The translations under genes and the position numbers were made by a program. From a virus: a DNA stretch of 48,157 bases. The stretch spans positions 1 to 48,157 of the IMG/VR virus record IMGVR_UViG_3300027754_000147. One strand, given 5' to 3'. The notes under the pieces were generated by a model. The model made no database searches. It had not been told where the DNA came from and saw only the letters and a program-made list of their open reading frames with translations. Below, one piece after another: positions 1-48,157 of the stretch (positions within the stretch are counted from its first letter, which is position 1; every line of letters starts with the position of its first letter).

Positions 1-2898
1 TATTTTACTTTTGGTTTAAAACCTTATATAAATAAGTCAGATAATGTAACTTATATTCATTGTAAAACAGAACGAGAGCTATTTACTAAATTTATAGAGT
101 ATTTAGCTGATGATTATCCTGATGTAATAACTGGTTGGAACTGTCTCGAAGAAAATCAGCATATCTGGCTCAAAGATAGAATTATTAAGATTAAAGATTT
201 ATCAAATAATTACGAGAGTAAACCACTTAAAACCCATGGTATTTGTATAAATAATTTTATGAATACAGGTAATAAAGATGAATATAAACTTACTACAGAG
301 CATGGAGATCAAATAAGATGTTCTATAGATCATAAATTTATGGTATATACCTTAGAAAAAGGAAAATATAGTTGCTATAATGTGTTAACAAAAAATTTAC
401 AAACGCTAAGTGTTAAAGAAATAATAAAGCTTCAAGATACACATTATGTATATTTTACAAAATATCTTAATAACAATAAAAATAAAGATTTAACTTATCG
501 CGATTTAATTGAAAATAGTGAACGGCTTAAAAAATATATTGTATCTACCAACCTTAATGTATATACATTTAATTTTACAAAAACAAAACGAATAAATAGT
601 AGTTTTGATATTAATATAGATGAAATTATTAGTCCTGATATTTTAAAATTATTAGGTTTTATTTTTACAGATGGAACATTTTCCAAAACTGAAAATACAT
701 TTCGTTACACTAACAAGTATAAGAATGTTGTAGATAGTTATACAGAGATTTATAATAAAGAACACAATACAGATTTAAGTCTTTCACTAGAATGTAATAC
801 TGTCTTTAATGGTAAAGAGTTTCAAGCATATAGTAAACAAGTCCATAATAATAATAAATTAGGCATACTTTTTGAAATAATTTATAATGAAAGTTTAACC
901 AAACAGCCTAATATTGAGTTAATATCCCGCCTTTCTTATAACCAGTTTATGTTATTTCTTAGTGGTATGATAGATGGTGATGGTTCCATTACTGCAGATG
1001 CTGTGCTATTATGTAATTATGATTGTGTAAAATATAGCTTTTTAAATGATTTACAAGAACTCTTATTGTGGAACGGTATTCAATCAAGTGTAAATACAGA
1101 TACAACAATATTACGTATTGCTGCAAATACCTTAAACAAACAACACATCGAAACATTAAATTTATTTCAGCAAGAACGTAAAACTAGATTATCACAATTA
1201 AATTATAGACAAATAAAAAATACAGCATCTAATAATATCTCTTGGTATTCAAAGGATGATAAAGTTGTAGTAAGACTCAAGCCAGTACTAAAAACAGGCA
1301 ATATTGTACAAATGTATGATATTACTACAGAGACACATACATTTTTATGTAAAGGCATACATACTCACAACTGTTCTGGCTTCGATATTCCATATATTGT
1401 TAATAGATGCGAACGTATTCTTAGTGAAGAGTATGTTAATATGCTATCTCCTCTCGGTAAAGTGCATTATCGTACGTTTATGGGTAAGTTTGGTAGGGAA
1501 CAAAAGAGATACTTTTTGGATGGTATATCTGTAATTGACTATCTTGATATTTATCGACGTTTTTGTCTTAAATTGCGCGAATCCTATAAACTTGATGCAA
1601 TTGGCGAATTAGAATTAGGTCAACGTAAGATTGATTACGGTGATATTGACTTAGCTACTTTATCTGATACTAATTGGCAGACATTTGTCGATTATAATAT
1701 ACAAGACGTTAATCTTGTTATTAAGTTAGAAGAAAAACTTCAGTATATATCCTTACTTCGTATGTTATCGGTTGTAGGTTTAACTACTCTTGAAGGAGCT
1801 ATGGGTACTCTATCAGTTATTAACGGAGCTCTTGCAATTAAAGCGCGAGCTCGAGGCGAAATTATTTCAACGTTCATTCGATCTGAGAAACCTGGTCAGA
1901 ATCCTGGTGCTTATGTTGCTACTCCTAAAAAAGGGTTTAAAACTAGTGTTGTATCGTTTGATGCTAACTCTCTATACCCGAATGTGATGATTTCCTTGAA
2001 TCTATCGCCTGAAACGAAGATTGGTAAGATAGAGAAGACTAATACCGGTAATATTAATATATATCATGTATCTGGTAAGTGTTTTGAGTTATCCCCTGCA
2101 GCTTTTAGTACTTATATTAAGCAAGAGCAATGTGCGGTAACTAAAGCAGGATTTCTCTTTAGTCAGAAGAAGAGAGGTATTATTCCTGAGTTTCTTGACT
2201 ACTATTACAATGAACGAGTATTAGTAAAGGAGTTATTGTTTAAAGCCAAGACGCAATTAAGTACTACTCCTAAAAATACTCCTGCTTATACTGAATTACA
2301 GTATGAAGTAGAGAGACTTAATACTAAACAGATGGTTATTAAGGTGCTTGTTAATAGTTGTTATGGATATATGGGTAATAAGCAAGCTCCTATAGGAGAT
2401 GACGATATTGCATCGTCAGTTACCTTAACTGGTCAAGCTATTATTAAGCAAGCTGGTAAGATTCTGCAAGATTACTTAAAAATTAACTTTAATGTACTAG
2501 ATGAAAAGGTACTAGATGAAAGTTGGGTATATTCTGATACAGATTCTTATACGGGTGATACTCAAATAGTTACTAATAGAGGGACATTTGACGCAGCAGC
2601 TCTATGGGATGAATTTATAAGTACATCAGTAAATCTTACAACTTTTGGACATGAAGTTCAAAAAATAAACGATTTAAATGTTTTATCATACGATAAAACT
2701 GAAGATACCATTAAGTTTAGAAAGGTTAAAAACCTAATTAGACATAAAGTGACTAAAGGTAAATATAAAATAACCGTTAATAATAAAAATATTACAATGA
2801 CTGAAGATCACGGATGTATTGTAATTCGAAATGGTGATTTAGTTAGAGTGTCTGCTAAAGAAATACAAAAAGGTGATAAGATGATAGTACGTCGCTAA
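1..2898 (+). CDS. 43: DNA polymerase (gp43-like), N-terminal fragment with a LAGLIDADG intein and a split N-intein; 5' partial
   Basis: Frame 1 is open from base 1, so the start and roughly 160-170 residues (judging from T4 gp43) lie upstream. The product is the replicative family-B polymerase with 3'-5' exonuclease. Visible host motifs are Exo II (DVITGWN, interrupted, then CSGFDIPYI), Exo III (YNIQD), motif A (SFDANSLYP, about 1954-1980), motif B (KVLVNSCYG, about 2341-2367) and motif C (YSDTD, 2530-2544). The host sequence is interrupted by a contiguous intein at 142-1371. It ends after motif C by running into an N-intein (2545-2895) with its own stop. The rest of the polymerase is encoded at 3836-4810 and must be joined by trans-splicing. 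The middle extein is 391 codons, close to the corresponding T4 segment. An ATG at 259 lies inside the intein and is not a real start. Polymerase assignment is very secure. Confidence 0.96.
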   Translation, partial: YFTFGLKPYINKSDNVTYIHCKTERELFTKFIEYLADDYPDVITGWNCLEENQHIWLKDRIIKIKDLSNNYESKPLKTHGICINNFMNTGNKDEYKLTTEHGDQIRCSIDHKFMVYTLEKGKYSCYNVLTKNLQTLSVKEIIKLQDTHYVYFTKYLNNNKNKDLTYRDLIENSERLKKYIVSTNLNVYTFNFTKTKRINSSFDINIDEIISPDILKLLGFIFTDGTFSKTENTFRYTNKYKNVVDSYTEIYNKEHNTDLSLSLECNTVFNGKEFQAYSKQVHNNNKLGILFEIIYNESLTKQPNIELISRLSYNQFMLFLSGMIDGDGSITADAVLLCNYDCVKYSFLNDLQELLLWNGIQSSVNTDTTILRIAANTLNKQHIETLNLFQQERKTRLSQLNYRQIKNTASNNISWYSKDDKVVVRLKPVLKTGNIVQMYDITTETHTFLCKGIHTHNCSGFDIPYIVNRCERILSEEYVNMLSPLGKVHYRTFMGKFGREQKRYFLDGISVIDYLDIYRRFCLKLRESYKLDAIGELELGQRKIDYGDIDLATLSDTNWQTFVDYNIQDVNLVIKLEEKLQYISLLRMLSVVGLTTLEGAMGTLSVINGALAIKARARGEIISTFIRSEKPGQNPGAYVATPKKGFKTSVVSFDANSLYPNVMISLNLSPETKIGKIEKTNTGNINIYHVSGKCFELSPAAFSTYIKQEQCAVTKAGFLFSQKKRGIIPEFLDYYYNERVLVKELLFKAKTQLSTTPKNTPAYTELQYEVERLNTKQMVIKVLVNSCYGYMGNKQAPIGDDDIASSVTLTGQAIIKQAGKILQDYLKINFNVLDEKVLDESWVYSDTDSYTGDTQIVTNRGTFDAAALWDEFISTSVNLTTFGHEVQKINDLNVLSYDKTEDTIKFRKVKNLIRHKVTKGKYKITVNNKNITMTEDHGCIVIRNGDLVRVSAKEIQKGDKMIVRR
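142..1371 (+). other. Contiguous intein with LAGLIDADG homing endonuclease, in polymerase Exo II motif
   Basis: This is a 410-residue in-frame insertion between GWN and CSGFD of the Exo II motif. It begins with Cys1 (CLEENQHIWLKD) and ends in HTHN before a +1 Cys. Block B is seen as TTEHGDQIRCSIDHKF and block F as MYDITTETHTFLCKGIHTHN. Two LAGLIDADG-type motifs, LLGFIFTDGTF (about 649-681) and FLSGMIDGDGSI (about 955-990), show a dodecapeptide-family homing endonuclease inside it. All splicing residues (Cys1, block-B His, terminal His-Asn, Cys+1) and both acidic endonuclease residues are present, so both activities look intact. Insertion in an exonuclease catalytic motif means unspliced polymerase should be non-functional for proofreading. 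Function is inferred from motifs. Confidence 0.95.
2545..2895 (+). other. Split N-intein (Ser1) of polymerase motif-C intein
   Basis: After YSDTD the reading frame enters SYTGDTQIV, a class-1 intein block A with Ser1 in place of Cys1. It continues for 117 codons to a stop at 2896-2898. Block B is recognisable as YKITVNNKNITMTEDHG. Archaeal polymerase inteins use the same motif-C site and often Ser1. The matching C-intein is at 3836-3982. The junction restores YSDTD-SLYF, in agreement with family-B motif C followed by an aliphatic and an aromatic residue. Confidence 0.92.
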
Positions 2899-2905
2899 TC
2901 TTGAA

Positions 2906-2956
2906 TATAAATAATTAGCTGTATCTGTATATAAATAAGCTGTATCTGTATAAATA
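2906..2956 (+). promoter_or_regulatory. Three tandem T4-type late promoters (TATAAATA) in a short direct repeat
   Basis: TATAAATA occurs at 2906-2913, 2930-2937 and 2949-2956. The copies are separated by repeats of the element AGCTGTATCTG. The last copy ends 5 nt before the ATG at 2962, so its transcript would start at or near the start codon of the homing endonuclease. The consensus matches T4 late promoters recognised by a gp55-type sigma factor with gp33 and the clamp. Promoter activity is inferred from the motif. Confidence 0.75.
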
Positions 2957-2961
2957 TTTAT

Positions 2962-3846
2962 ATGACTACTAATATTCAATGCCAAGTATGCTTACGAACA
3001 TTTAAGAGCCTTTCAACTACACATTTAAAAACACATAATATGAGTTTTGATGAGTATAAAGTTAAATACCCTAATGCAATCATCAAAAGTGAATTAACTA
3101 AGAGTAAAATGACATGTACACTTGAGAATATGATAAGAGTTCATGGTGAAATTAAGGGACCTATTGCATTTAATATATATAAACAAAAGCAGGCTTATTC
3201 TAACTCGTTTGAATATAAACAACAACGTTACGGCTGGACTAAAGAAAAATATGATGAATATAACAGCAGTAGAGCTAATACAAAGAAAAATAGTATAAAT
3301 CGATATGGTAAAGAGTTAGGAGAAAAAAAATGGAGTGAATATTGTAATATTCAAAGATATGCAGGCGTCTCATACGAGTATTTTATTGTTAAATATGGAA
3401 ACATTGAAGGAGCTGAGAGATATGAAAAAATGCTTGATAAAAAAATGCATCATAACTTTGCTGGTCATAGTAAAGTATCAGCTGAATTATTTGCGTTAAT
3501 AGATATTGACGGTAATGGTTATTATGCACCAAAAACAGCTGAATATAAATTTAAAACATCTGCTATAACTAGACGATCTTTTTTTGTTGACTATTACAAT
3601 CCAATACAGCGACGAGCTATAGAATTTTACGGTAATTATTGGCATAGTAATCCAGCAATATATACAACTGACTTTATAAATCGAAGTAAGCGTACCGCAA
3701 AAGAGCAGTGGGAATTTGATTCAAATCGTATTAGTAGTATTGAAAAAGAATTTAATATAAAAATACTAGTAATATGGGAGAATGACTTTAAAATGAAAAG
3801 AGAATTTACAATTGAGCAAGCTAAAGCATTTATATATGATAGATAA
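2962..3846 (+). CDS. Free-standing homing endonuclease, Vsr-like EDxHD type, between split-intein halves
   Basis: A 294-residue protein. The N-terminus has a MucR/Ros-like zinc finger, C7-x2-C10-x10-H21-x3-H25. The middle contains YGKELGEKKWSEYC and KYGNIEGAERYEKML segments, typical of DNA-binding repeats in phage endonucleases. The C-terminal third has the Vsr-fold pattern: E175 (SAEL), D210 (FVDYYN), E221-H228 (EFYGNYWH) and a late IWENDF strand. Such enzymes are known from fractured phage genes, where they sit between the two halves of a split-intein gene and are thought to spread the arrangement. It lies between polymerase fragments, with late promoters directly upstream. Its last codons overlap the start of the downstream C-intein gene, suggesting translational coupling. 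All family residues are present, so it is probably active. Confidence 0.88.
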   Translation: MTTNIQCQVCLRTFKSLSTTHLKTHNMSFDEYKVKYPNAIIKSELTKSKMTCTLENMIRVHGEIKGPIAFNIYKQKQAYSNSFEYKQQRYGWTKEKYDEYNSSRANTKKNSINRYGKELGEKKWSEYCNIQRYAGVSYEYFIVKYGNIEGAERYEKMLDKKMHHNFAGHSKVSAELFALIDIDGNGYYAPKTAEYKFKTSAITRRSFFVDYYNPIQRRAIEFYGNYWHSNPAIYTTDFINRSKRTAKEQWEFDSNRISSIEKEFNIKILVIWENDFKMKREFTIEQAKAFIYDR

Positions 3847-3982
3847 TATTAAAAATTACGATATAGTTGAAGTTACATGTGTAGAACAGTTAGAAGATTT
3901 TGTAGATGAATATGTATATGATCTTGAAATGGAAGATAGTAATCAACCCTGGTTTTTTGCTAACGATATTTTAATTCATAAT
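3836..3982 (+). other. Split C-intein of polymerase motif-C intein
   Basis: Forty-nine residues with block F as YVYDLEMEDSNQPWFFAND and block G as ILIHN, followed by Ser+1. Penultimate His and terminal Asn are present. It pairs with the Ser1 N-intein at 2545-2895. N- and C-inteins together are about 166 residues with no internal endonuclease, a normal minimal intein size. Confidence 0.92.
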
Positions 3983-5219: not shown

Positions 5220-5252
5220 AACCTTGTGTAATTAATTACACAAGGTTTTTTT
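5220..5252 (+). terminator. Rho-independent terminator
   Basis: A perfect 28-nt palindrome (14-bp arms, left arm AACCTTGTGTAATT) at 5220-5247 is followed directly by a run of T. It lies 10 nt after the stop of the Sm-like gene. It should end the polymerase transcript. Confidence 0.9.
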
Positions 5253-5282
5253 ATGGTTAAAAATATATCAGTAGTTATAATA
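5235..5282 (+). repeat. Intergenic module copy A (terminator arm plus promoter)
   Basis: This stretch matches 5970-6016 at about 42 of 48 positions by my hand alignment, with one single-base gap. The shared parts are the right arm of the terminator with its T-run and the promoter-like CAGTAGTTATAATA. Copy A retains a full terminator hairpin. Confidence 0.8.
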
Positions 5283-5288
5283 TAAATA
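5276..5288 (+). promoter_or_regulatory. Overlapping early (TATAAT) and late (TATAAATA) promoter elements
   Basis: TATAAT at 5276-5281 and TATAAATA at 5281-5288 share one base. The late element ends 11 nt before the ATG at 5300. Both should drive the phosphoesterase. No clear -35 box was found at the standard distance. Confidence 0.6.
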
Positions 5289-5299
5289 TTAAACATATT

Positions 5300-5956
5300 A
5301 TGCATATCTTAACTATTAGTGATGTTCATTTAGGAAGTCCTGTCAGTCAAAAGGATAAAGTCCTGCAAGTATTGAACTTCGACTTTAATACTTTAATTAT
5401 TAATGGTGATTTATTTGATAGTTATTCGTTTAAAAGATTTGATAAAAAAGATTGGGCAATTCTAAGTAAAATCCGTAAATTAAGTAAATCACATGAAGTC
5501 ATCTTAGTACATGGCAACCATGATGCTAATGCGGAATTTTTATCAGCTATTACAGGAATGGATTTTGTAGAAAATCATCTTTCGATTATTAATGGAACGA
5601 AATATTTCTTTGAGCATGGCGATAAATACGATCACTGGATTAAACACAAGCCATTTATTACGTGGTTTTTTACAGGACTGTATTATCAAATTCAAAAAAT
5701 TGATAAAAACCATAATACTTCCCGAATGCTCAAACGAATGAGTAAATCGTGGGTTAAAGCAAAAGATATTGTCTGTAAAAAATTCGTAGAGAAGTATGGT
5801 GCTAAATATGATGTGCTTTTAGCAGGACATACTCATCATGCTGAAGTTAAATACATGAACAATTGCACTTACATTAATAGCGGGTCATTTTGTGAAGAAA
5901 AGTGTTCTTATGTGGAAATTTATGAGGATGGAACATTTTCTTTAAAATATCTTTAA
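5300..5956 (+). CDS. Calcineurin-like metallophosphoesterase
   Basis: A 218-residue enzyme with all metal-binding motifs of the family: D8 and H10 in SDVHLG, D37 in NGDLFD, N73-H74-D75 in GNHD, a His in FEHGDKYDHW, and GHTHH near residue 176. The C-terminal INSGSF strand is also typical. The arrangement is closest to small bacterial LpxH/YfcE-type phosphoesterases, which hydrolyse phosphodiester or pyrophosphate bonds with two divalent metals. The substrate cannot be told from sequence. It could be a nucleotide, a phosphorylated end or a lipid intermediate. It lies between two copies of an intergenic terminator/promoter module, so it is probably transcribed as its own unit just ahead of uvsX. 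Confidence 0.88.
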   Translation: MHILTISDVHLGSPVSQKDKVLQVLNFDFNTLIINGDLFDSYSFKRFDKKDWAILSKIRKLSKSHEVILVHGNHDANAEFLSAITGMDFVENHLSIINGTKYFFEHGDKYDHWIKHKPFITWFFTGLYYQIQKIDKNHNTSRMLKRMSKSWVKAKDIVCKKFVEKYGAKYDVLLAGHTHHAEVKYMNNCTYINSGSFCEEKCSYVEIYEDGTFSLKYL

Positions 5957-5969
5957 ACCTACTCAACCG

Positions 5970-6016
5970 ATTACATAAGGTTTTTGATGGCCAAAAATAT
6001 AACAGTAGTTATAATA
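5970..6016 (+). repeat. Intergenic module copy B
   Basis: The second copy of the 5235-5282 module. The promoter part is conserved but the left terminator arm has been reduced to CTCAACCGATTACATAAGG, so the hairpin is weakened. It lies directly before uvsX. Read-through from the phosphoesterase may therefore be possible here. Confidence 0.8.
6010..6015 (+). promoter_or_regulatory. TATAAT promoter element for uvsX, 6 nt before ATG
   Basis: TATAAT is followed by six bases (AGATAT) and then the ATG at 6022. A sigma70-type start about 7 nt downstream would fall on the start codon, so the mRNA would be leaderless. There is no Shine-Dalgarno sequence. Confidence 0.6.
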
Positions 6017-6021
6017 GATAT

Positions 6022-6270
6022 ATGGATAAAGATATTAGAAGCGCACTAGATTCAATTAATGAAATTAACCCTTTTGCTACATGGTTAGATGATAATGCTC
6101 TAAGTACTGTTAATGGGTGGATTGATACTGGTAGTTATGTGCTAAATGCTATTATCTCTGGCTCAATTCATGGAGGTATTCCGAAAGGAAGAGTAACAAT
6201 GTTAGCTGGAGAATCAATGTGTTTAACAAAAGATCAAAAAATTAAAGTATATGAAATGAAAACACTCTAA
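6022..6270 (+). CDS. uvsX: UvsX/RecA-like recombinase, N-terminal fragment ending in a 16-residue N-intein
   Basis: A short 82-residue product. Residues 1-66 are the UvsX N-terminus, reaching the first half of the Walker A loop (GRVTMLAGESM). At residue 67 the sequence switches to CLTKDQKIKVYEMKTL and stops. The remaining Walker A, TGKS, is found after an intein C-terminus at 7003 in the next gene. Joining them gives GESMTGKS, a proper GxxxxGKS P-loop. The fragment cannot bind ATP alone. It is only useful as a trans-splicing partner. Total host sequence after joining is 365 residues, close to T4 UvsX (about 391). Confidence 0.9.
   Translation: MDKDIRSALDSINEINPFATWLDDNALSTVNGWIDTGSYVLNAIISGSIHGGIPKGRVTMLAGESMCLTKDQKIKVYEMKTL
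6220..6267 (+). other. Extremely short (16-residue) split N-intein
   Basis: Cys1 follows GESM of Walker A, and the reading frame ends 16 codons later. Block A is present but block B is not. Block B (NGCEIQCADEH) is instead encoded in the C-fragment gene at about 6769-6801. The intein is therefore split between blocks A and B rather than at the usual endonuclease position. Atypically split inteins with very short N-fragments (AceL-TerL, VidaL) are established precedents. Confidence 0.85.
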
Positions 6271-6485
6271 TAATAGAATATAACGACGTAATATTTCATC
6301 CGAGAGAAACAGATACGTGGGCAACAACAGTTGCAGAAAGTATAAAGAAAGATAATCAAAAATTAACTGTAGCTAAAAATTTAGGTTTTGAATTATTTTA
6401 TATTTGGGAAAAACGAGATATGGATATAGATTTATCAAATATTGTTAATATAATTAGACAAAGATATGACAATAAATCAAATTAA
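6270..6485 (+). pseudogene. Remnant of Vsr-like EDxHD homing endonuclease
   Basis: A frame without a start codon here encodes a segment with IIEYNDVIFHP, then AKNLGFELFYIWEKRD, ending in a stop at 6483-6485. It aligns with the C-terminal part of the intact endonuclease at 2962-3846: E-x6-H spacing matches EFYGNYWH, and IWEKRD matches IWENDF. Everything upstream, including the zinc finger and the counterparts of E175 and D210, is gone. The remnant abuts the 16-residue N-intein and overlaps the start of the C-fragment gene. It should not be an active nuclease. A start in an unusual codon cannot be fully excluded. Confidence 0.82.
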
Positions 6486-7002
6486 AGCAGAACTTCTCTA
6501 TTTTTACGAATATACTGAATTAGCGAAACTTGTTGGTATAAGCAAGAGTACATTAGAAAAACTCAACGATAATACAGCAACAAATATAACAACTAAATTA
6601 ATTACTGATTTTTTTAACACTCACTGTGACACTTTTAGTATAGAAACAACAATACCTAATATCAATCTAACAAATAAACAGTATTTAGTCGATACGCCAG
6701 ATGGATATCAGCTATGTACGATGTTTATAACTAAGCCTAATAAACCATGTGTGCATATTATTGCAGATAATGGATGTGAAATACAATGTGCAGATGAACA
6801 TCTAATACAACTGCAGACTAATAATAATACTGATTTAGGGTGGGTTATGGCTAATACATTAAAAGTAGGAGATATTGTAGATACAAAAAACGGTATAACT
6901 ACTATTAAACAAATAAATAGACTAGAGGTTCAAGATGTGTATGACTTTAGTGTTAATCACTCAAATCATAGATATTGGGCTGGAGGATTTAGTAACCATA
7001 AT
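6466..7002 (+). other. Long split C-intein of UvsX (blocks B, F and G) with N-terminal HTH extension
   Basis: The true intein part probably starts near YLVDTPDGYQ (about residue 75). Block B is IIADNGCEIQCADEHLI, followed by a conserved LKVGDIV turn, block F VYDFSVNHSNHRYWAGG and block G FSNHN, then Thr+1. Penultimate His and terminal Asn are present. Together with the 16-residue N-intein it would make a complete splicing domain. Thr at +1 is allowed but less common than Ser or Cys. Confidence 0.85.
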
Positions 7003-7902
7003 ACAGGAAAAAGTCTGTTTGTACAAAAAATTCTTGCTAATGCACAGAAAGAAGGCTTGATCCCTGTTATATTTGATACAGAAAACTCTATTGACGCTAC
7101 TGGTGCTACTAGACTAGGTCTTGATATTTCAAAGATTAAATATGTACCTTGCGTTACTATTGAACAAACACGAAACGCTATTTTTAAGTTTTTAACTGCA
7201 GTTAAAGAGAAAGGTCTTGAAGGTAAATTTATTGTAGCTATCGATTCTTTAGGTAATCTTCAATCTGAACTTGAACTTTCACGAATGGATAAAGAGAGTA
7301 CTTCATCTGATATGGGATCTAAAGCTCGTGCAATTAAGTCCTTAATGCAAACTTGTACTAATTTCGGTGCTATTACAAGAACTACTATTATTTGTACAAA
7401 TCATGTGTATGATGATCCAACTGCAATGTATCCTACAATTGAAAAGATGATGCCTGGTGGTAAATCAGTTATATTCTTACCATCAGTAACAGTTCAGCTT
7501 GCTCGTAAACCTATTAAGGATGATGGAGGTAAAACAAACGATGGTGTTCTTGCTGTTGGTCAGAAGAACTACTCTGGTATTGTTATTAGAGCATTAACTC
7601 GTAAAAATCGCTTTATTAAGCAATACCTTGAAGGAGAAATGTATCTATCTTTTGCATCAGGACTTGATAAGTACTATGGTCTACTTGATCTCGCTGTAGG
7701 TCTTAAAGTTATCATACAAACAGGAGCTACTTATACTCTTGAAAATGGTACTAAGCTCGGATATGCAAAAAGCTTTAGAAAAGATACTAAACTTTGGGAA
7801 GAAACTATTTTACCTGTACTTGAATCACGTATTGCTAAGGAATGGAACTACTCTAATATAGAGGAAGAAATACCTCTTGAAAATACCTTAATTACTGAAT
7901 AA
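6466..7902 (+). CDS. uvsX: UvsX/RecA-like recombinase, C-terminal fragment with HTH-bearing split C-intein
   Basis: A 478-residue protein. Residues 1-179 precede the splice site and the C-extein (299 residues) begins TGKSLFVQ, completing Walker A. Walker B is visible as FIVAIDS. The rest follows the RecA/UvsX core through PGGKSVIFLPSVTVQL. UvsX forms filaments on single-stranded DNA, displaces gp32 and catalyses strand exchange in recombination-dependent replication. The N-terminal 60 residues contain a helix-turn-helix-like segment (LAKLVGISKSTLEKLND) that belongs neither to UvsX nor to canonical intein blocks. ATG 6466 is the first ATG and overlaps the endonuclease remnant. No Shine-Dalgarno sequence. 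queC follows after one base. Confidence 0.93.
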   Translation: MTINQIKAELLYFYEYTELAKLVGISKSTLEKLNDNTATNITTKLITDFFNTHCDTFSIETTIPNINLTNKQYLVDTPDGYQLCTMFITKPNKPCVHIIADNGCEIQCADEHLIQLQTNNNTDLGWVMANTLKVGDIVDTKNGITTIKQINRLEVQDVYDFSVNHSNHRYWAGGFSNHNTGKSLFVQKILANAQKEGLIPVIFDTENSIDATGATRLGLDISKIKYVPCVTIEQTRNAIFKFLTAVKEKGLEGKFIVAIDSLGNLQSELELSRMDKESTSSDMGSKARAIKSLMQTCTNFGAITRTTIICTNHVYDDPTAMYPTIEKMMPGGKSVIFLPSVTVQLARKPIKDDGGKTNDGVLAVGQKNYSGIVIRALTRKNRFIKQYLEGEMYLSFASGLDKYYGLLDLAVGLKVIIQTGATYTLENGTKLGYAKSFRKDTKLWEETILPVLESRIAKEWNYSNIEEEIPLENTLITE

Positions 7903-11061: not shown

Positions 11062-12495
11062 ATGGTTAAACTGGATTTAGACTTTTTTGAAAACGTTATC
11101 ATTTATAAATCTCTAACAGATGCTGGTTACTTAGCCTCTATTCTTGACTTTGTTAATCCGGAGTACTTTAAATCAGCAAATATTGCTGATGTTTTTAATA
11201 TTATTAAAGAGTTTTATGTAAAAAGACAAAAAGTACCTAATATTACAGAAATTAAATCATATTTAATAACTGAAGAATTAAAAACCGCTTTCAAAAATAT
11301 TGTATATTCATTTAGTGAAATAGATAAAAACTTAAATAAAGACGAATTATATCATAATACAGAAAGATTCTTAAAAGAGAAAGCTGTATATCATACTATG
11401 CTTAATATTGCTACTGATATTGCTAAGGGTAATGTCGATACTACAAAAGCATTAGATAAATTTGAAAAGGCATGTAATATCAGTTTAATAACTGATAAAG
11501 GGCTTGATCTATATAATAATATTGAAGCTATTATTACTGACCTAAGTACTGTTAATGGAACTATACCTTCTACCTGGGAGTGGCTTGATGAAACTCTTGG
11601 AGGTGGGTTTCTTGAGCAAGGTAAAGCGCTTTATGTATTTGCAGGTGAAACGAATATTGGTAAATCTATCTTTCTCGGTAATATAGCCACTAATATTGCA
11701 AATCAGAATAAGAACGTTTTGCTAATTACTCTAGAGATGTCTGAACTTCTCTATGCTAAGCGTTTATGTTCTAATATTTCAAAAATACCTCTTAAAGATC
11801 TTGCAAATAATCCGCATGCTTTACGTACTGCTATTAAAGAAAATAGAGAGAAGACTAATGGTACTATATTAATTAAGGAATTTCCTCCTGCTACCATTAC
11901 TGCTAATCAAATTAGTGCATTCGTAAAGAAGATTACTGATACAGGATGTAAAATAGATGCTATTGTATTAGATTACTTGAATCTATTGCATACTACTGTA
12001 GGGAGTAATTCATATGAGAGAATTAAGCATATTACAGAGCAAATTCGAGCATTAAGCTATGTCTTTAATTGTCCTATTATCTCAGCTACCCAGCTAGGTC
12101 GAAATGCGTATGGTCAAACTGATCCGGGTATGGAAACTATCTCTGAATGTATTGAAGTTAATCAGCTAGTACGGCTAAGAAATGGTTTAGAGGTGTCCAT
12201 TGGTAATTTGAAGCCAGGTGATCAAATAACTGCTAATGATGGGTATAAAACTATTAAGCAAGTACATCATAAAACAGTTAAAGAATGTTACAAAATTACA
12301 ACTAAAACAGGTAAAACTATAATAATAAGTAGCAAGCATAAATTTCCTACTATAAGAGGTCGTATATCTATTCAAGAGGGGTTAAATGTAGGCGATAAAA
12401 TTCATACAAAATCAAGTGTATCTGCCAGCCCTACTATAAATGTATGGTCAGATTCGCTATTAACAATAAAGCAATTAGAAAAAGAAATATTATGA
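11062..12495 (+). CDS. 41: Replicative DnaB-type helicase (gp41-like), N-terminal fragment with split N-intein
   Basis: A 477-residue product: 362 residues of helicase followed by a 115-residue N-intein. Helicase motifs are a DnaB-like N-terminal helical domain, Walker A GETNIGKS (about residue 194), LLITLEMS, and Walker B IDAIVLDYLNLL (about residue 299). The host part ends PGMETISE. gp41 is the hexameric 5'-3' fork helicase that works with gp59 and gp61 primase. The remaining 77 host residues are in the following gene. The two fragments together give 439 residues, near the T4 length of 475. The fragment ends in an ATGA overlap with the C-fragment gene. Confidence 0.94.
   Translation: MVKLDLDFFENVIIYKSLTDAGYLASILDFVNPEYFKSANIADVFNIIKEFYVKRQKVPNITEIKSYLITEELKTAFKNIVYSFSEIDKNLNKDELYHNTERFLKEKAVYHTMLNIATDIAKGNVDTTKALDKFEKACNISLITDKGLDLYNNIEAIITDLSTVNGTIPSTWEWLDETLGGGFLEQGKALYVFAGETNIGKSIFLGNIATNIANQNKNVLLITLEMSELLYAKRLCSNISKIPLKDLANNPHALRTAIKENREKTNGTILIKEFPPATITANQISAFVKKITDTGCKIDAIVLDYLNLLHTTVGSNSYERIKHITEQIRALSYVFNCPIISATQLGRNAYGQTDPGMETISECIEVNQLVRLRNGLEVSIGNLKPGDQITANDGYKTIKQVHHKTVKECYKITTKTGKTIIISSKHKFPTIRGRISIQEGLNVGDKIHTKSSVSASPTINVWSDSLLTIKQLEKEIL
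12148..12492 (+). other. Split N-intein of gp41
   Basis: It begins with Cys1 (CIEVNQLVRLRNGLE) and shows LKPGDQI and block B YKITTKTGKTIIISSKHKF. The canonical N-intein ends near VGDKIHTK. About 24 extra residues (to KQLEKEIL) follow, helical at the end. It belongs to the same general type as the metagenomic gp41 split inteins. Confidence 0.93.
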
Positions 12496-12761
12496 TAGAA
12501 AAACTCAAACGCATTATGACTGAACGAGTTAAGTTGATGCAAGTACTCGAAGTGGTTGATAAAGAATCAACAACAGAAGAGCTTGTAGATGTTCTGATGA
12601 AGGTATATTATGAACAAGAAGATAAAAATTTACTAACAGATAGTCTTATAGATTATAATGATGAAATTATATCTATCGAAAATGTAGGTGATTGTGAGAC
12701 CATTGATATATCAGTAACAGGTGATAGTTTATTCTTTTGCAATGATATACTAACAAAAAAC
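12492..12761 (+). other. Split C-intein of gp41 with helical N-terminal extension
   Basis: The C-intein proper is the last about 37 residues: IISIENVGDCETIDISVTGDSLFFCNDILTKN in two blocks, then Ser+1. The penultimate residue is Lys in place of the usual His. About 50 preceding residues are charged and helical (ERVKLMQVLEVVDKE, ELVDVLMKVYYEQEDK), longer than known gp41 C-inteins. The extension may help the two halves associate. Confidence 0.88.
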
Positions 12762-47459: not shown

Positions 47460-48157
47460 TAAAACAAGCAAAACAGTTAATTTCCTTATCAGTTACAAAC
47501 GAGCTCTTATACAAATGATCTGCAATAATTGATATCATCTTCTTCTTTCTTAGATCGTCAATATTTTGAGCATAGATATGCTCTAACAATTCTACAAGAA
47601 GATTATCATAATCACTATTAAATCTACTCTCATTTTCAATGAGATATTTACGCAAAGTAATAACGTCTTTATTCGTAATATGATTATAGATATTTTTTAG
47701 CAGCTCACTATCTACATGTATGTTTTCTATACAGAGCTCTTTGTCTACGCAGTTCTTTTGAAGTTCATTGATAGTCTTCCTAATATCAGGAAAATTGACT
47801 TTGACGAGCTCTATGAACTTCTTTTTCTGTTCTTCGCTAACAGTAATATCTTCACTTTTAAGTATAGAATAGCACCTACGTACAGCAGCTTCGATTACTG
47901 GCTTAATCTCAATCGATTGACATCTTGACTGAAGAGCTGGGATAATTTTATGCTTATAATTACCTGTTAAGATAAACCGAGTAGTCTTGGAATATGACTC
48001 CATAGTATTACGTAATGCAGCTTGCGCCGGTCCGGTCAAACCATCACAGTTTCCAGTTAATATCTGACTTTTACCTACAAAAAAATTGTTTGTCTTATTA
48101 ACACCGATATCATAAACTACGACAGACTCACTTAATTTTTTTATTGTTTTAATTTTT
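47440..48157 (-). CDS. 44: Clamp-loader ATPase large subunit (gp44-like), C-terminal part with intein; 5' partial
   Basis: The frame is open to the window edge on the minus strand. An alternate TTG start at 48039 is only an ORF artefact. The host part starts CDGLTGPAQAALRNTMES and continues FILTGNYKHKIIPALQSRCQ, which is the RFC/gp44 segment after Walker B with the SRC motif (sensor and arginine-finger region). The C-terminal helical part suits the gp44 collar domain. Upstream lies an intein C-terminus (48049-48157). gp44 loads the clamp together with gp62, which is not in the window. Strand differs from the other replication genes. Confidence 0.88.
   Translation of the reverse strand, partial: KIKTIKKLSESVVVYDIGVNKTNNFFVGKSQILTGNCDGLTGPAQAALRNTMESYSKTTRFILTGNYKHKIIPALQSRCQSIEIKPVIEAAVRRCYSILKSEDITVSEEQKKKFIELVKVNFPDIRKTINELQKNCVDKELCIENIHVDSELLKNIYNHITNKDVITLRKYLIENESRFNSDYDNLLVELLEHIYAQNIDDLRKKKMISIIADHLYKSSFVTDKEINCFACFITLELC
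48049..48157 (-). other. Intein C-terminal part in gp44, cut by window edge
   Basis: Thirty-six visible residues: SVVVYDIGVNKTNNFFVG (block F) and KSQILTGN (block G), followed by Cys+1. The penultimate residue is Gly, not His. The insertion is just before the D-G-L-T after the Walker B acidic pair, giving DE-CDGLT if the missing extein ends in DE. Whether the intein is contiguous or split cannot be told here. Confidence 0.85.

What the first reader, a model, noticed from the sequence alone, without database searches (positions are those of the whole stretch)
6022..7902. Atypically split UvsX intein with a 16-residue N-intein
Seen: the N-fragment leaves UvsX after GESM and adds only CLTKDQKIKVYEMKTL before a stop, while intein block B (NGCEIQCADEH) and all later blocks are in the C-fragment, ending FSNHN-TGKS. 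Joining restores the P-loop GESMTGKS. Known: splits between blocks A and B with short N-inteins exist (AceL-TerL, VidaL). A naturally functional 16-residue N-intein is small enough to be chemically synthesised, so it would be useful as well as rare.
Basis: partly seen in the sequence, partly recalled or inferred. Interest (0 to 1): 0.88.

Follow-up and report, generated by a model that had tools for sequence, protein, structure and literature searches.

The report
VidaL-type split intein in phage UvsX
A phage recombination gene is cut in two, and its halves are probably rejoined as proteins by a split intein whose first piece is only 16 residues; this is a divergent relative of the laboratory tool VidaL, unusual mainly because its large piece carries an extra DNA-binding-like domain.

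Summary
uvsX is split at its P-loop: 6022-6270 ends GESM|CLTKDQKIKVYEMKTL followed by three stops, and 6466-7902 ends its intein part at SNHN|TGKS. Sister contigs 94-96% identical (L004, L005) lack exactly 6220-7002 (783 bp) and read GESMTGKS. All catalytic residues are present, and AlphaFold docks the 16-mer into a Hint fold whose best PDB match is VidaL. Splicing itself is untested. The 'rare' claim fails. VidaL (6VGV) has a 16-residue N-intein at the same UvsX P-loop site, and of 36 non-redundant relatives with an assignable N-intein, 19 have 15-17 residues. That domain is absent from VidaL but marks the window's branch. Verdict: a new, HTH-bearing variant of the VidaL-type, atypically split 'fractured gene' intein, with its endonuclease eroded.

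The parts
6022..6219 (+). UvsX N-extein (66 aa), ends MLAGESM
   Evidence: phrog_97 positions 16-82, E 1e-11; contiguous in L004/L005
6220..6267 (+). N-intein, 16 aa CLTKDQKIKVYEMKTL (Cys1, beta1-beta2; S1 split)
   Evidence: 16-aa counterpart CITASQKIKVYEMKTM in L093; docks at pLDDT 97 over residues 1-10 in the read-through model
6268..6276 (+). three in-frame stops TAA TAA TAG
   Evidence: sequence
6255..6485 (+). open frame without a start codon: C-terminal remnant (~70 aa) of a Vsr-like (EDxHD-type) homing endonuclease; homology begins near 6274 and the frame overlaps the IntC start by 20 nt
   Evidence: profile E 1e-14; open frame of 70 codons, 2 of 1000 shuffles; aligned with whole HENs of L065, L091, L085, L089
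6466..6639 (+). IntC N-terminal extension, ~58 aa, Cro/C1-like HTH domain
   Evidence: AF2 helices 3-13, 16-23, 27-32, 40-57, pLDDT 96-98; HTH_26 E 0.002; profile hits in PDB almost all HTH regulators
6640..7002 (+). C-intein Hint part: block B (CADEHL, His112), block F (VYDFSVNHSNHRY), block G (FSNHN)
   Evidence: PF14890 E 9e-6; D79 G80 K90 H112 D160 H165 H168 R169 S176 H178 N179 invariant in 31 sequences; VidaL TM 0.70
7003..7902 (+). UvsX C-extein from Thr+1 (TGKSLF...) to stop
   Evidence: phrog_97 E 3e-43; 26 synonymous and 0 non-synonymous codon differences from intein-less L005
6220..7002 (+). whole inserted element, 783 bp, precise between codons ATG and ACA
   Evidence: absent without any other gap from L004 and L005

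Best explanation
This is a naturally and atypically split (S1 site, between blocks A and B) class 1 intein of the VidaL type, inserted in the P-loop of phage uvsX and arranged as a 'fractured gene'. The 82-residue N fragment and the 478-residue C fragment are made separately. The 16-residue IntN adds the first beta-hairpin to the Hint horseshoe of IntC. Cys1 makes the thioester with Met-1, Thr+1 takes over the chain, Asn179 cyclises with help from His178, and full-length UvsX (GESMTGKS) is released. The element once carried a free-standing Vsr-like homing endonuclease between the fragments; a deletion removed all but its last ~70 codons, so it can no longer home by itself. IntC also carries an N-terminal Cro/C1-like HTH domain, most likely an accessory DNA-binding module inherited from the homing system. 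Shown here: sequence, empty site, homology, predicted fold. Inferred: splicing, and the role of the HTH domain.
For: Precise empty site in near-identical sisters. All catalytic positions kept, invariant over 31 relatives. VidaL is the best PDB match by sequence (E 1e-14) and fold (E 1e-9, TM 0.70); adding IntN improves it to E 6e-12, TM 0.74 although no IntN rows were in the alignment. VidaL has the same site (ESG|...|SGK) and a 16-aa IntN. Relatives L065 (full HEN, 19-aa IntN) and L093 (16-aa IntN, HEN remnant) form a supported clade with the window (95/86). Purifying selection on the exteins. Same plan in isolated phage PA5oct, where the C fragment's product is noted as detected by mass spectrometry.
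Against: No splicing was measured. The extein substitutions relative to L005 could predate the insertion. The read-through model uses an artificial linker (translated gap, stops set to Gly/Ser) and a shallow alignment. The tree rests on 98 columns with many open forks. The MS note for PA5oct gp274 does not say whether the peptides come from spliced protein.
Confidence: 0.86

Rival explanations
1. The 16-residue IntN is an accident: the deletion that removed the endonuclease also cut off the end of a longer N-intein, so splicing is impaired and the element is decaying.
For: The deletion begins close to the IntN end; relative L065 has a 19-residue IntN and many HTH-bearing relatives have 24-33.
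Against: L093 ends almost identically (QKIKVYEMKTM against QKIKVYEMKTL) with a different deletion endpoint in its endonuclease. VidaL works with 16 residues (PMC13014065). AF2 places residues 1-10 at pLDDT 97.
Confidence: 0.08
2. The split gene is dead: uvsX is a pseudogene in this phage and recombination is supplied by another gene or the host.
For: The N fragment stops before the P-loop lysine, so neither half alone is active; the contig is incomplete, so a second uvsX cannot be excluded.
Against: No non-synonymous change in 299 C-extein codons against 26 synonymous ones, intact splicing residues, and the same arrangement kept in many phages.
Confidence: 0.05
3. A sequencing or assembly artefact, or recoding (frameshift or stop read-through), joins the two ORFs without an intein.
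For: The two ORFs lie in the same frame (444 nt between their starts).
Against: Three consecutive stops plus further TAA and TAG codons before IntC; element identical in a second contig; exact intein blocks at both junctions; no slippery heptamer seen by eye at the IntN end.
Confidence: 0.01

Closest known systems
VidaL split intein (PDB 6VGV/6VGW)
   Same: Same UvsX-type P-loop site (ESG|...|SGK), 16-residue IntN, S1 split after beta2, Cys1, C-A-x-x-H block B, H-N end.
   Different: 31-33% identity; only 3 of 16 IntN residues shared; +1 is Thr, not Ser; the window's IntC has an extra ~58-aa HTH domain and lies on the other side of a supported branch.
Fractured uvsX of Pseudomonas phages PA5oct/MIJ3 (L089)
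   Same: N fragment with a short IntN (17 aa), then a gene, then IntC-UvsX, at the same site.
   Different: Endonuclease whole (477 aa); IntC without HTH domain; annotated as hypothetical proteins, and the MIJ3 paper describes only the PolB split intein (PMC6892783).
Fractured genes with Vsr-like homing endonucleases (Dassa et al. 2009, cited in PMC10448857; content from my own knowledge, text not held)
   Same: Split gene, split intein, free-standing endonuclease in the gap (intact in L065).
   Different: Here only the endonuclease C-terminus remains, and the split lies near the N end of the intein.
AceL-TerL / GOS-TerL atypically split inteins
   Same: Short IntN, split between blocks A and B.
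   Different: Per PMC13014065 those split at S2, after the first helix (AceL 25 aa); here the split is at S1, after beta2.
PolB16 OarG split intein
   Same: S1 split with a 15-aa IntN (PMC10189870).
   Different: Ser1/Ser+1 PolB intein; here Cys1/Thr+1 in UvsX.
HTH accessory domains of LAGLIDADG inteins (TliVMA, PI-TkoII)
   Same: An intein carrying an HTH-like module (PMC8966425).
   Different: There it is nested in a contiguous endonuclease-bearing intein; here it caps a split C-intein and the endonuclease is a separate gene, now mostly deleted.

Membership tests
Class 1 intein (Hint splicing domain) | Cys/Ser1, block B His, block F/G residues, terminal Asn, nucleophilic +1 residue | tested here: met
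   C1, H112, D160, H165, H178, N179, T+1 present; the IntC ones invariant across 31 relatives; PF14890 E 9e-6, below Pfam's gathering score
Class 1 intein (Hint splicing domain) | Horseshoe Hint fold | tested here: met
   AF2 pLDDT 95; Foldseek hits to many inteins, VidaL first
Class 1 intein (Hint splicing domain) | Protein splicing activity | not testable with these tools
   needs expression
VidaL-type atypically split intein | S1 split giving an IntN of about 15-17 aa | tested here: met
   16 aa; VidaL chain shows 16 aa before the IntC Met
VidaL-type atypically split intein | Insertion in the UvsX P-loop between GxSx and [ST]GK | tested here: met
   GESM|TGKS, empty sites GESMTGKS
VidaL-type atypically split intein | Nearest solved relative and same clade as VidaL | tested here: inconclusive
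   VidaL is the nearest PDB entry, but the window lies outside the supported no-extension group that holds VidaL (95/92)
Fractured gene with Vsr-like homing endonuclease | Endonuclease gene between the two gene fragments | tested here: not met
   Only a C-terminal remnant in the window; whole in relative L065
Cro/C1-type HTH domain (IntC extension) | HTH fold and sequence profile | tested here: met
   Four helices at pLDDT 96-98; profile hits to CylR2, SinR, HipB, 434 repressor at E 0.009-0.7, weak singly but consistent
Cro/C1-type HTH domain (IntC extension) | DNA binding | not testable with these tools
   needs a binding assay

The most novel reading that the evidence does not exclude
The C-intein is a two-function protein: after splicing, the excised IntC, with the 16-mer bound, acts as a sequence-specific HTH DNA-binding protein (a regulator of the locus, or a homing-site binder that can work with an endonuclease supplied by related phages). 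This would explain why the HTH domain is kept in several lineages that lack an intact endonuclease (window, L093, L094, L096, L156). It would tie protein splicing to gene control.
Probability: 0.15. Interest if true: 0.7.

Novelty: new variant of a known kind. Interest (0 to 1): 0.45.

Why it matters
The window and its relatives supply a natural series of at least 17 distinct N-inteins of 15-16 residues with matching C-inteins, most from uncultured phages. These are candidate orthogonal tags for peptide-based protein labelling beyond VidaL. Endonuclease states run from whole through remnant to none, and contiguous versions exist, so the family is a dataset for asking how inteins split, lose mobility and stay split. 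The HTH-bearing C-intein is a form I found in no solved structure or readable paper, and it raises a testable question about what an intein does besides splicing.

Tried and rejected
The genome-contig scan returned no confirmed relative and the plasmid search none, so the family looks restricted to phages in the collections searched. Aligning contiguous relatives with the read-through window misplaced their IntN, so the model was made without IntN rows. An idea that the IntN tail EMKTL derives from the endonuclease was dropped when L093 showed the same tail. A link between IntC extension and longer IntN (p 0.0015, which also counts the mis-assigned rows L111 and L097) did not survive the tree: only one independent pair. 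Endonuclease presence does not track the HTH domain. A promoter-like motif upstream of uvsX is not above chance in the window. The primary VidaL and fractured-gene papers are not held; VidaL facts come from the PDB sequence and PMC13014065.

Full report
Observation. The uvsX gene in the window is in two ORFs. The first (6022-6270, 82 aa) ends MLAGESM|CLTKDQKIKVYEMKTL and is closed by three stops in a row. The second (6466-7902, 478 aa) begins with a C-intein ending GGFSNHN and continues TGKSLFVQK... into UvsX. The UvsX family profile is divided at the same position. Of the 80 nearest UvsX loci in viral contigs, 77 read GESMTGK without interruption, one is truncated there, and two (L003 and L065) carry an intein. 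L004 and L005 are 94-96% identical to the window in the flanks and lack exactly 6220-7002, 783 bp, with no duplication at the site.

What lies between the fragments. The frame 6255-6485 is open without a start codon. It matches, at E 1e-14, the C-terminal end of a Vsr-like (EDxHD-type) homing endonuclease profile built from relatives; an open frame that long turns up in 2 of 1000 shuffles. L065, whose C-intein is 55% identical, has the whole endonuclease (303 aa or more) in that place and a 19-residue N-intein, CLTANQKIRVYTLQSPANQ. L093 has a 16-residue N-intein, CITASQKIKVYEMKTM, and an endonuclease remnant with a different deletion endpoint. So the window's element is a fractured-gene intein whose endonuclease has been deleted down to its last ~70 codons. 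The remnant overlaps the start of the C-intein ORF by 20 nt.

The C-intein. All splicing residues are present. Over 31 relatives D79, G80, K90, H112, D160, H165, H168, R169, S176, H178 and N179 are invariant. Before the Hint part there are about 58 residues that VidaL does not have. AlphaFold2 gives the whole C-intein pLDDT 95, with helices 3-13, 16-23, 27-32 and 40-57 in front of the Hint strands. Pfam sees HTH_26 weakly. A profile of ten such extensions retrieves from the PDB mainly Cro/C1-type HTH proteins (CylR2, SinR, HipB, 434 repressor), each weakly, E 0.009 to 0.7. HTH accessory domains are known in contiguous endonuclease inteins, where they affect DNA recognition (PMC8966425).

Does the 16-mer complete the fold? 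IntN and IntC happen to be in the same frame, so the stretch 6220-7002 was modelled in one chain with the stops read as Gly/Ser. No other IntN row was in the alignment. Residues 1-10 came out at pLDDT 97 with strand 7-12, while the nonsense linker stayed between 35 and 55. The match to VidaL rose from E 1e-9, TM 0.70 without IntN to E 6e-12, TM 0.74 with it. This supports complementation but does not show splicing.

What is known. VidaL is the best match by sequence and by fold. The PDB chain reads ESG|(C1A)LPKEAVVQIRLTKKG|MIEEKK...SH(N to A)|SGK, assuming the two Ala residues are inactivating mutations. VidaL thus has a 16-residue N-intein and sits in a UvsX-like P-loop at the same place. PMC13014065 lists VidaL at 16 aa, PolB16 OarG at 15 aa, and natural short N-inteins of 15-37 aa.

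Relatives. A scan found 131 related stretches, 80 kept, nearly all in UvsX-like P-loops (GxxG|C...HN|[ST]GK[ST]), with a PhoH-like case (L091/L095); a TerL relative (L086) came. Of 36 non-redundant split cases with a reliable N-intein, 19 have 15-17 residues. The endonuclease is whole in 23, a remnant in 6 and absent in 7 (one mis-assigned row, L111, left out). Contiguous versions exist, including Salicola phage SCTP-2. Pseudomonas phage PA5oct has the complete arrangement (N fragment with a 17-aa IntN, a 477-aa endonuclease, IntC-UvsX), annotated as hypothetical proteins and a recombinase whose note is 'ESI-MS/MS'. In a tree of the Hint part, the window, L065 and L093 form a supported clade (95/86). 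The VidaL group, which has no extension, is separated from the window by a supported branch (95/92). Nearly all split members outside that group have the extension in full or shortened form; the two distant rows L119 and L153 do not.

Selection. Against L005 the C-extein has 26 synonymous and no non-synonymous codon differences, and the N-extein 12 and 1. Against L065 the HTH part has dN 0.28 and the rest of IntC dN 0.45, with dS above 1 in both. These fit a gene in use, although the extein changes may be older than the insertion.

Conclusion. The element is very probably a working, VidaL-type, S1-split class 1 intein that has lost its homing endonuclease. Two things go beyond VidaL: a C-intein with an HTH domain marking a distinct branch, and a wide natural set of short N-inteins. 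Splicing, and the function of the HTH domain, remain to be measured.

Noticed in passing
window 142-1371: Contiguous 410-aa intein with a LAGLIDADG domain in DNA polymerase B (GWN|CLEEN...HTHN|CSG).
   Followed up: partly
window 2545-3982: Second PolB intein, canonically split with Ser1/Ser+1 (YSDTD|S...HN|SLYFS), a 117-aa IntN, a whole Vsr-like endonuclease at 2962-3846 and an IntC from 3812: a candidate cysteine-less-type split intein.
   Followed up: partly
window 12148-12761: gp41-type helicase split by an intein (115-aa IntN; IntC ORF up to 106 aa); the two ORFs overlap by 52 nt with no endonuclease between them.
   Followed up: partly
window 48049-48156 (minus strand): The clamp-loader large subunit (gp44-like) begins with a C-intein end, FFVGKSQILTGN|CDGLTG, so a fourth replication gene carries an intein; cut off by the window end.
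   Followed up: partly
L089 (NC_071039 133532-139840): Fractured uvsX in Pseudomonas phages PA5oct/MIJ3 (gp276/275/274) is annotated as hypothetical proteins plus a recombinase; the MIJ3 paper mentions only the PolB split intein.
   Followed up: yes
L091 1767-5029 (LR756500, 462-kb uncultured phage): A PhoH-like ATPase gene fractured at its P-loop by an HTH-bearing member of the same intein family, with a 430-aa endonuclease.
   Followed up: partly
phage records H75-H101 (Salmonella/Escherichia phages such as Det7): Terminase large subunit genes give weak hits (29.5% identity, E 3e-4) to the C-intein, so these phages may carry a TerL intein.
   Followed up: no
window 5235-5300 and 5970-6037: A ~69-bp terminator/promoter-like stretch is repeated (83% identical) upstream of the phosphoesterase-like gene and of uvsX.
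   Followed up: no
L065 1497-1529: A strong terminator-like hairpin (accccct...aggggg) lies between the short N-intein and the endonuclease, inside the longer predicted ORF; the endonuclease may start after it at GTG 1535.
   Followed up: no
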